A DNA stretch of 46,876 nt from Deltaproteobacteria bacterium (GTDB lineage: Bacteria > Desulfobacterota > Desulfobulbia > Desulfobulbales > VMSU01), in the NCBI GenBank assembly GCA_021782655.1, contig JAJXUT010000008.1, positions 1 through 46,876 on the forward strand, read 5' to 3'. Shown in pieces: positions 2,363-4,384 of the stretch (the first letter of the stretch is position 1; each line of letters opens with the position of its first letter). The notes under the pieces were generated by a model. It was not told the origin of the DNA and searched no databases. It worked only from the letters and a program-made list of their open reading frames with translations. The position numbers were made by a program, and so were the translations under genes.

Positions 2363-4384
2363 ATGATCCCTGGTCAGAGGCCCAGAAAGAGGCGCCGGAC
2401 TGGGCTGCCGATCGTGGTCTGGCTGTTGCTGCTGGCCCTGGGCGGGGTGCTCGGCTGGACGGTGCTGCATAGGCTCTTCCCCGGCCCGGCCACGAAGGTC
2501 GCTGCCCCCGCCGGTCAGGAGCCGCCCCCACCCGCCGCTGGGGAGAAGCCGCCCGCCGGCAAGTTTCGGCAGCCCATCTTTGATCGCAATATGACCGCCC
2601 TGGCGGTCAGCTTCAAACAGGCCTCGGTGTACCTGAGCCCCATGGAGTTGCAGGAGGCCCAGCGGCCAGTCGAGCACCTGGCCGCCATCCTAGGTTTAAC
2701 CCCGGAGAAACTTCGGGCCGAGCTGCGCACCGAGCGGAAATTCGTCTGGCTGAAGCGCAACCTCGACCTGGCCACGGCCCGCAAGATCGCCGACGCCAAG
2801 CTGGACGGGGTGTACCTGGTGGACGAGCAGCACCGCTTCTACCCGTTTCACGACCATGCCGCCCACGTCGTCGGTTTTGAAAAGGAGGACCAGGGGCTGG
2901 CGGGCGCGGAATTTCTCTATAACAGCATTCTGCGCGGGGATCGGACCTTGGCCACCCAATACCTTAACCTGCCGGGTCTCAACGTCGCCGACATCCCGAT
3001 CACCGGGGCGGCGGCGGTCGTCTCCATCGACATCGACCTGCAAACCCTCCTGGAGCGGAAGCTGCAAGCGCTGCTCCAGCAGACCCGGGCCCAGTCGGCG
3101 AGTGCCGTGGTCATGGATGCGGATAGCGGGGAGATCCTCGCCATGTCCGATCTGCCGTCCTACGATCCCAACACCTACTGGAAGGCCTCGGCCTCGGCCT
3201 ATCAGAATCGCCTAGTCAACGACCCCGTCCCGTTGCTGGGCCTAAACGCCTTCTTCAAGGCCGCCGCCGAGCTGGCCGCCGGCAACCTGCCTTCCGATCT
3301 TTCGGCCACCGCCGGTGACGATCCCGACCCGGGGCAGGTCATCGCCCCCCGGGCCTTCAAGATTGTCAAGGGCGAGACCGCCGCTACCGCCGCCACCCCT
3401 GAATCGCAGGTCTGGCGGCCTGGCATCCATCTGAGCCCGCCCTTTCAGTGGTCACGGCCCTACACCGTGCCGGAGCAGAGGCTGGAGGGCTTTTGCCGTC
3501 AGTTGGGTCTGGCCGCCGCCGGCTCCGGCCTGGGCGAGACCCGGCTGGGCGGCGAGGTTGGCAAGCCGGCTGCTGGCGAACCCTGCCGCCTGGATGACGA
3601 TCACTGGCGGGTGATGCCCTTGAATGTCCTGGCCGCCTTCAGTTCGCTCACCAACGGCGGGGCGGGCGTTTCTCCCCATTTGCTCAAGGGCCTTTGGCGG
3701 ATGGAGGACAGCAGTTTTCATCCCCTCTCCTTTCCGAGGAGCGAGGGGGTAGGCCAGGAGGCCAGCACCCGTTTTCTCAGTTTTGTGGAGGGCCTGGAGC
3801 CGCCGGGCCCGGACGACGCCCTGGTGGTCGAGTCGATCCGGGCCAGCAAGCCTCCGCCCCCGCCGGGGGCGGTGCCGGCCAAGGTGTCGGAGGGGGGCGA
3901 GACCGGGGAGTCGATTGAAGACCTCTTTCGCTTCGCCATCACCACTCTGGGCGAGGGCCGGGAGAACGGCCATCAACTGGCGGTGATCCTGCTCTTGGAC
4001 GGGGCGAGCCTGGACCTTTCCCTGCCCTCGCCCACCCGCAAGACGGTCGCTGAGCTGATCAGCCAGGGGCAGGGCCTGCTGGCCAAGCGCTGGGACGCCA
4101 AGCTCAAGCCCCCGCATCTGGAGTCGGATCAGGTGCTCTACCAGGACTGGCTGGAGTCTCAGGCCCAGGAGCCCATAAGCCAGCCGGCCAGCAACGTCGG
4201 CGCCCTGGAGATGCCGAACGTGGTGGGCTTGAGTCTGCGCAAGGCCATGCAGGCCTTGCAGGGCTTCAATCTGAAGGTCGGTATTCAGGGTTCGGGACGG
4301 GTGGCGGAACAAAGCCCGGTAGCGGGGGTCAAGCTCAAGGACGTGGACGAGATCAAGCTCAAGTTGGCGCCAGACAAACCTTGA
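2363..4384 (+). CDS. ftsI: FtsI/PBP3-family protein with PASTA domain; catalytic transpeptidase motifs apparently lost (pseudo-transpeptidase)
   Basis: Retains FtsI-like RQPIFDRNMTALAVS, GLAGAEFLYNSILRGD, ASAVVMDADSGEILAMSDLPSYDPNTYW, MPLNVLAAFSSLTNGGAGVSPHLLKGL and a PASTA repeat (EMPNVVGLSLRKAMQAL...). SxxK, SxN and KTG motifs are not present at expected positions. Confidence 0.85.
   Translation: MIPGQRPRKRRRTGLPIVVWLLLLALGGVLGWTVLHRLFPGPATKVAAPAGQEPPPPAAGEKPPAGKFRQPIFDRNMTALAVSFKQASVYLSPMELQEAQRPVEHLAAILGLTPEKLRAELRTERKFVWLKRNLDLATARKIADAKLDGVYLVDEQHRFYPFHDHAAHVVGFEKEDQGLAGAEFLYNSILRGDRTLATQYLNLPGLNVADIPITGAAAVVSIDIDLQTLLERKLQALLQQTRAQSASAVVMDADSGEILAMSDLPSYDPNTYWKASASAYQNRLVNDPVPLLGLNAFFKAAAELAAGNLPSDLSATAGDDPDPGQVIAPRAFKIVKGETAATAATPESQVWRPGIHLSPPFQWSRPYTVPEQRLEGFCRQLGLAAAGSGLGETRLGGEVGKPAAGEPCRLDDDHWRVMPLNVLAAFSSLTNGGAGVSPHLLKGLWRMEDSSFHPLSFPRSEGVGQEASTRFLSFVEGLEPPGPDDALVVESIRASKPPPPPGAVPAKVSEGGETGESIEDLFRFAITTLGEGRENGHQLAVILLLDGASLDLSLPSPTRKTVAELISQGQGLLAKRWDAKLKPPHLESDQVLYQDWLESQAQEPISQPASNVGALEMPNVVGLSLRKAMQALQGFNLKVGIQGSGRVAEQSPVAGVKLKDVDEIKLKLAPDKP

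What the first reader, a model, noticed from the sequence alone, without database searches (positions are those of the whole stretch)
2363..4384. FtsI-position gene is an intact pseudo-transpeptidase: SxxK, SxN and KTG all lost
Seen in sequence: where FtsI proteins have ...PSxDPNxx...NRxxxDxxEPGSTFKxxxxxAALE, this ORF reads LPSYDPNTYWKASASAYQNRLVNDPVPLLGLNAFFKAAAELAAG (3221-3259 covers the replaced segment), with no Ser three residues before the Lys. The SxN region reads LSPPFQWSRPYTVPEQRLEGFCRQLGLA, and the KTG region reads KVSEGGETGESIEDLFRFAITTLG (ETG at 3899-3907). The ORF is 673 codons without interruption. It keeps the pedestal RxxIxDRN motif, the pre-catalytic transpeptidase core, the VMPLNVLAAFSSLTNGG segment and a PASTA domain. 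Established: all three motifs are needed for penicillin-binding transpeptidase activity. Inference: the gene has been kept for a structural or regulatory divisome role rather than decaying.
Basis: partly seen in the sequence, partly recalled or inferred. Interest (0 to 1): 0.9.

Follow-up and report, generated by a model that had tools for sequence, protein, structure and literature searches.

The report
Dead FtsI in FtsW-less bacteria
A whole class of walled, dividing bacteria (Desulfobulbia, the group that includes the cable bacteria) has lost the septum-building polymerase FtsW and kept its partner cross-linking enzyme FtsI as a catalytically dead but strongly conserved protein, so these cells must build the division wall with other enzymes while FtsI survives as a scaffold or regulator.

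Summary
ORF 2363-4384 is an intact 673-aa FtsI orthologue in the dcw cluster of a Desulfobulbales genome. It lacks SxxK, SxN and KTG. In an alignment with active FtsI of the same phylum, 37/37 active proteins have all three motifs, while 0/50 Desulfobulbales orthologues have SxxK and 0/50 have KTG. The gene evolves under purifying selection (dN/dS about 0.15). The pedestal and PASTA domain are as conserved as, or more conserved than, in active FtsI; the catalytic region has relaxed. Elsewhere in the phylum, lineages that lost FtsW also have a dead or stripped-down FtsI (at least 4 independent origins on a Mur/FtsA tree). All fetched loci with a dcw FtsW have intact FtsI. Loss of ftsW was noted before in a few of these taxa; I found no report that FtsI is dead. 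Most likely FtsI* is a FtsQLB-linked, PASTA-bearing divisome scaffold that directs class A PBPs (or RodA-PBP2) at the septum. That partner assignment is inference.

The parts
2363..4384 (+). pseudo-FtsI (FtsI*), 673 aa, catalytically dead class B PBP in the ftsI slot of the dcw cluster
2405..2476 (+). predicted N-terminal transmembrane helix (residues 15-38)
   Evidence: AlphaFold2 model
2561..3007 (+). pedestal/PBP_dimer domain (residues 67-215), as conserved as in active FtsI
3008..4087 (+). transpeptidase-fold relic (residues 216-575); first strands and DPN motif kept, catalytic centre degraded
3221..3259 (+). replaced nucleophile segment DPVPLLGLNAFFK (residues 287-299), no SxxK
3425..3460 (+). 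replaced SxN region, around LSPPFQWS (approximate)
3821..3844 (+). predicted strand LVVESIRA (residues 487-494) with invariant Glu490; one candidate equivalent of the KTG strand
3905..3913 (+).
4205..4372 (+). PASTA domain (residues 615-670), more conserved than in active relatives
2021..2356 (+). ftsL, directly upstream, FtsL-like with LGL motif (weak profile match)
8723..10120 (+). murD, followed directly by murG with no ftsW between
10050..11246 (+). murG ORF, occupies the position right after murD where ftsW lies in active relatives
13589..14446 (+). ftsQ (retained)
14460..15716 (+). ftsA (retained)
15858..17099 (+). ftsZ (retained)

Best explanation
This is a vertically inherited FtsI that lost its transpeptidase chemistry together with the loss of its polymerase partner FtsW in an ancestor of the Desulfobulbia. 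It is kept as a membrane-anchored divisome scaffold. The pedestal holds it in the FtsQ-FtsL-FtsB assembly and the PASTA domain reads or binds peptidoglycan. With FtsW gone, septal glycan polymerisation and cross-linking are done by enzymes that are still intact: most likely class A PBPs, which FtsI* recruits or activates at midcell, with RodA-PBP2 contributing. Shown by sequence: loss of all three motifs class-wide, absence of FtsW, retention and purifying selection, and co-occurrence of both losses elsewhere in the phylum. Inferred: scaffold role, binding to FtsQLB, aPBP as the client.
For: No Desulfobulbales FtsI keeps SxxK (0/50) or KTG (0/50), against 37/37 with all motifs in the rest of the phylum. 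No class genome shows FtsW: 141 of 149 have exactly one SEDS, six none, and the two counted as two are pieces of one gene (G019 checked). The sole SEDS lies beside PBP2. PBP2 and two aPBPs of the own genome carry intact motifs. dN/dS 0.149. Pedestal identity 0.38 in both groups, PASTA 0.46 against 0.31, KTG strand 0.14 against 0.58. FtsB found in all 12 genomes tested. The same pairing of no FtsW with dead or shrunken FtsI occurs in f32, f69, f44, f43, f39 and f68, at least 4 origins, and in f62. Precedents: catalytically inactive PBP 2B supports division in B. subtilis (PMC5656894). C. difficile lacks FtsW/FtsI and divides with aPBP PBP1, helped by a bPBP (PBP3) whose catalysis is dispensable and which forms a complex with PBP1 (PMC10693644, PMC12539705). 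FtsBLQ binds PBP1b directly (PMC6325244).
Against: No interaction, localisation or essentiality data were found for any of these organisms. In E. coli FtsI binds FtsQLB mostly through FtsW (PMC6325244), so how FtsI* would stay in the complex without FtsW is unexplained. In C. difficile FtsQLB is dispensable for vegetative division (PMC10693644). RodA-PBP2 could equally be the septal synthase. In f39/f68 even the pedestal is gone, so one scaffold mechanism may not fit all lineages. Four independent pairs are too few for a significant sign test.
Confidence: 0.62

Rival explanations
1. RodA-PBP2, the only intact SEDS-bPBP pair left, builds both side wall and septum, and FtsI* together with FtsQLB recruits or activates it at midcell in place of FtsW-FtsI.
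For: RodA-PBP2 is intact and adjacent in almost every class genome, and it is the only SEDS-bPBP pair. Activation of a SEDS protein by a bPBP is the known non-catalytic job of FtsI (stated for B. subtilis and S. aureus in PMC12539705).
Against: No direct evidence. G045 (99% complete) shows neither a SEDS nor a full-length bPBP hit, which if not an assembly gap would argue for aPBPs. The C. difficile precedent uses an aPBP.
Confidence: 0.27
2. FtsI* is a slowly decaying leftover with no current function.
For: The catalytic region has relaxed strongly, and other FtsW-less lineages have shrunk the gene to 250-440 aa.
Against: dN/dS 0.15; open frame without internal stops in every orthologue listed; conserved pedestal and PASTA domain across the order.
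Confidence: 0.04
3. FtsI* mainly acts as a peptidoglycan or lipid II sensor through its PASTA domain (checkpoint or regulator) rather than as a recruiting scaffold.
For: PASTA is the only region more conserved than in active FtsI, and in f39/f68 the gene has been reduced to a TM segment, a linker and a PASTA-like end.
Against: Pedestal conservation equals that of active FtsI in Desulfobulbia. f69, f44 and f43 appear to have lost PASTA and keep the pedestal, at least in part.
Confidence: 0.15
4. The motif loss is an assembly error or misalignment, and catalytic residues sit elsewhere in the fold.
For: None found.
Against: 50 orthologues from separate assemblies, no SxxK plus KTG pair even in loose windows; profile alignment covers 638 columns at E 7e-97.
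Confidence: 0.01

Closest known systems
FtsI/PBP3 (class B PBP, peptidoglycan D,D-transpeptidase), e.g. P. aeruginosa PBP3
   Same: dcw position after ftsL, TM helix, pedestal, transpeptidase fold (top Foldseek hits are P. aeruginosa PBP3)
   Different: no SxxK, SxN or KTG; no FtsW partner in the genome
SpoVD/FtsI of the PASTA-bearing type
   Same: best NCBIfam profile (TIGR02214 spoVD_pbp), C-terminal PASTA domain
   Different: far below the family cut-off (154 against 688 bits); dead active site
B. subtilis PBP 2B S309A mutant (PMC5656894)
   Same: catalytically dead division bPBP with a structural role
   Different: laboratory mutant with PBP 3 supplying catalysis; here natural and class-wide, without FtsW
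C. difficile divisome: aPBP PBP1 plus non-catalytic role of PBP3 (PMC10693644, PMC12539705)
   Same: division without an FtsW/FtsI pair; a bPBP acting without catalysis beside an aPBP
   Different: there the dcw-encoded SpoVE/SpoVD are sporulation-specific and FtsQLB is dispensable for vegetative division; the bPBP is not a natural pseudoenzyme
Reported ftsW absence in four Desulfobulbaceae (PMC7873302) and from the dcw cluster of Thermodesulfobacteria (PMC8871954)
   Same: same missing gene in the same or related taxa
   Different: PMC7873302 describes septal synthesis by FtsI activity as in E. coli; neither reports the loss of FtsI catalysis in the passages I read

Membership tests
Active FtsI / class B PBP transpeptidase | SxxK nucleophile motif | tested here: not met
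   0/50 Desulfobulbales orthologues, 37/37 active relatives
Active FtsI / class B PBP transpeptidase | SxN and KTG motifs | tested here: not met
   SxN-like 5/50, KTG 0/50; window protein has neither
FtsI lineage (orthology) | position between ftsL and murE in dcw, TM plus pedestal plus transpeptidase fold | tested here: met
FtsI lineage (orthology) | FtsW partner encoded in the genome | tested here: not met
   single SEDS (RodA) in the genome and class
PASTA-domain protein | PASTA domain over curated cut-off | tested here: met
   43.5 bits against cut-off 23.2
Pseudoenzyme (retained, non-catalytic) | catalytic residues lost while the gene is under purifying selection | tested here: met
Pseudoenzyme (retained, non-catalytic) | no beta-lactam binding or transpeptidation | not testable with these tools
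   needs Bocillin and transpeptidation assays
FtsW/FtsI-independent, aPBP-driven divisome (C. difficile type) | no functional SEDS-bPBP pair dedicated to the septum | tested here: met
FtsW/FtsI-independent, aPBP-driven divisome (C. difficile type) | aPBP is the septal synthase | not testable with these tools
   intact aPBPs exist; function untested

The most novel reading that the evidence does not exclude
An entire bacterial class, and several other lineages independently, run an FtsZ/FtsA/FtsQLB divisome with no septal SEDS polymerase and no FtsI catalysis. FtsI has been repurposed as a dedicated non-catalytic activator and targeting subunit of class A PBPs, and in some lineages it has been stripped down to a TM segment plus PASTA or a TM segment plus pedestal.
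Probability: 0.42. Interest if true: 0.92.

Novelty: new variant of a known kind. Interest (0 to 1): 0.82.

Why it matters
FtsW-FtsI has been described as universally conserved for septal wall synthesis, with clostridia the studied exception. Here is a Gram-negative class with cultured members in which both catalytic halves are gone, yet FtsI is retained. It is a natural experiment that separates the scaffold function of FtsI from its catalysis, and the shrunken versions elsewhere in the phylum show which parts can be discarded. It predicts a changed drug response: FtsI-specific beta-lactams should not block septation through FtsI in these bacteria, whereas aPBP or PBP2 inhibitors should. It also corrects the assumption about how cable bacteria make septa.

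Tried and rejected
Assembly error or hidden motifs: rejected. Pseudogene decay: rejected. A second active FtsI or FtsW elsewhere in the genome: not found. Stray KSGT/KTGT in L045 and L052: they lie outside the aligned catalytic position. A single common loss across the phylum: the tree needs at least 4 origins, though deep branches are uncertain. The split RodA in finished genome G019 looked like loss of the last SEDS, but both halves are undecayed and the break sits in a C-run, so a sequencing error is likely. A1 was too diverse for a contig scan; A2 worked.

Full report
What is there. ORF 2363-4384 encodes 673 residues without interruption in a dcw cluster: mraZ, rsmH, ftsL, the ftsI-like gene, a murE-murF fusion, mraY, murD, murG, murC, murB, ftsQ, ftsA, ftsZ. 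Pfam recognises the pedestal, only the first 40 of 299 positions of the transpeptidase domain, and PASTA. PDB sequence matches are class B PBPs, FtsI/PBP3 first, covering residues 68-313 at best. An AlphaFold2 model from 50 relatives (pLDDT 76, pTM 0.72) matches P. aeruginosa PBP3 best in Foldseek (E 8.6e-27, TM 0.65 on the target), so the fold is FtsI. The profile-profile alignment with active FtsI of the phylum covers 638 columns (E 7e-97).

Catalytic residues. In one alignment of 37 active FtsI proteins from the same phylum and 50 near-full-length Desulfobulbales orthologues, the active set has SxxK, SxN and KTG in 37/37. The Desulfobulbales set has SxxK in 0/50, SxN-like in 5/50 and KTG in 0/50; no member has both SxxK and KTG even in loose windows. 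Thirty-seven named contigs from public genomes (Desulfobulbaceae, Desulfurivibrionaceae, Desulfurivibrio sp. AMeS2 and others) also lack the catalytic motif patterns at the active-site position. The exact equivalent of KTG is ambiguous: ETG at 515-517 by profile alignment, or the strand 487-494 with invariant Glu490 by the model.

Not decaying. Against the 95%-identical orthologue, dN/dS is 0.149 by NG86 and 0.086 by YN00. Neighbouring dcw genes give 0.12-0.27 by NG86. Mean pairwise identity (active/dead): pedestal 0.38/0.38, PASTA 0.31/0.46, SxxK region 0.56/0.27, KTG strand 0.58/0.14. Selection has moved off the active site and stayed on pedestal and PASTA.

The missing partner. In the window murD is followed directly by murG; in active relatives FtsW lies between them. 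Across 149 genomes of the class, 141 have exactly one SEDS protein, six have none (drafts, one of them 99% complete), and two show two pieces of one gene (G019 read directly). The SEDS gene lies next to the only full-length bPBP, PBP2 (own genome). So FtsW is absent class-wide. The own genome has intact PBP2, two aPBPs with transglycosylase and transpeptidase domains and one YkuD hit. FtsB/DivIC is present in all 12 genomes tested.

The pattern in the phylum. Of 119 phylum genomes most have two SEDS. All 18 fetched dcw loci with FtsW after murD or mraY carry an FtsI strongly similar to active FtsI, and the FtsI proteins of these genomes that were checked have the motifs. Lineages without FtsW have: a dead full-length FtsI (f32, 643 aa), a dead 614-aa form with PASTA (f62), 538 aa (f69), 440 aa (f44), 333-340 aa with TM and pedestal (f43), or 248-329 aa with TM, linker and a PASTA-like end (f39, f68). 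On a tree of RsmH, MraY, MurD, MurG, MurC and FtsA the FtsW-less state needs at least 4 origins: Desulfobulbia with f69 and f44 (97% SH-aLRT), f43, f32, and f39 with f68 (5 with a simpler model). All four independent pairs go the same way, but four are too few for significance (p 0.125).

How it most likely works. Without FtsW, the known non-catalytic job of FtsI (activating FtsW; stated for B. subtilis and S. aureus in PMC12539705) cannot be the retained function. What is conserved is the membrane anchor, the pedestal and PASTA, beside retained FtsQ, FtsL, FtsB, FtsA and FtsZ. The best explanation is a scaffold or regulator that ties the FtsQLB complex and peptidoglycan sensing to another synthase. 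Class A PBPs are the likelier client: in C. difficile, which lacks an FtsW/FtsI pair, aPBP PBP1 makes the septum and PBP3, a bPBP, promotes it without catalysis while in complex with PBP1 (PMC10693644, PMC12539705); FtsBLQ binds PBP1b directly in E. coli (PMC6325244). RodA-PBP2 is the main rival. Steps shown: motif loss, FtsW absence, selection, co-occurrence. Steps inferred: scaffold role, binding partners, client.

Novelty. ftsW absence was noted for four Desulfobulbaceae (PMC7873302, which describes septal synthesis by FtsI activity as in E. coli) and from the dcw cluster of Thermodesulfobacteria (PMC8871954). Eight literature searches found no report of a naturally dead FtsI or of the joint loss. 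Only open-licence papers were searchable. I file it as a new variant of a known kind: an FtsI orthologue turned pseudoenzyme.

Noticed in passing
window 4478-7615; also L165-L168: murE and murF appear fused in one ORF (1045 aa in the window; a single collinear match in four other Desulfobulbia loci), but split in L164.
   Followed up: partly
G045 (class genome, 99% complete): No SEDS hit and no full-length bPBP hit: either a gap over the adjacent pbp2-rodA genes or a species that also lost RodA-PBP2, leaving only aPBPs and dead FtsI.
   Followed up: no
L201 about 9105 (G019:C1 about 138110): The only SEDS gene (rodA) is split by a frameshift in a run of C in a finished genome; both halves look undecayed, so probably a sequencing error.
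   Followed up: yes
L194 14050-15160, L195, L196: In the ftsI slot of f39/f68 lineages a 248-329 aa protein with a TM segment and PASTA-like C-terminus but no recognisable pedestal or transpeptidase domain.
   Followed up: partly
L003 (G000:C134): An aPBP of about 1000 aa with a large insertion that splits the transpeptidase match in two.
   Followed up: no
G187, G224, G258 dcw loci (L194-L196): No ftsQ match between murB and ftsA in these three FtsW-less lineages at this sensitivity; ftsQ may be diverged or lost.
   Followed up: no
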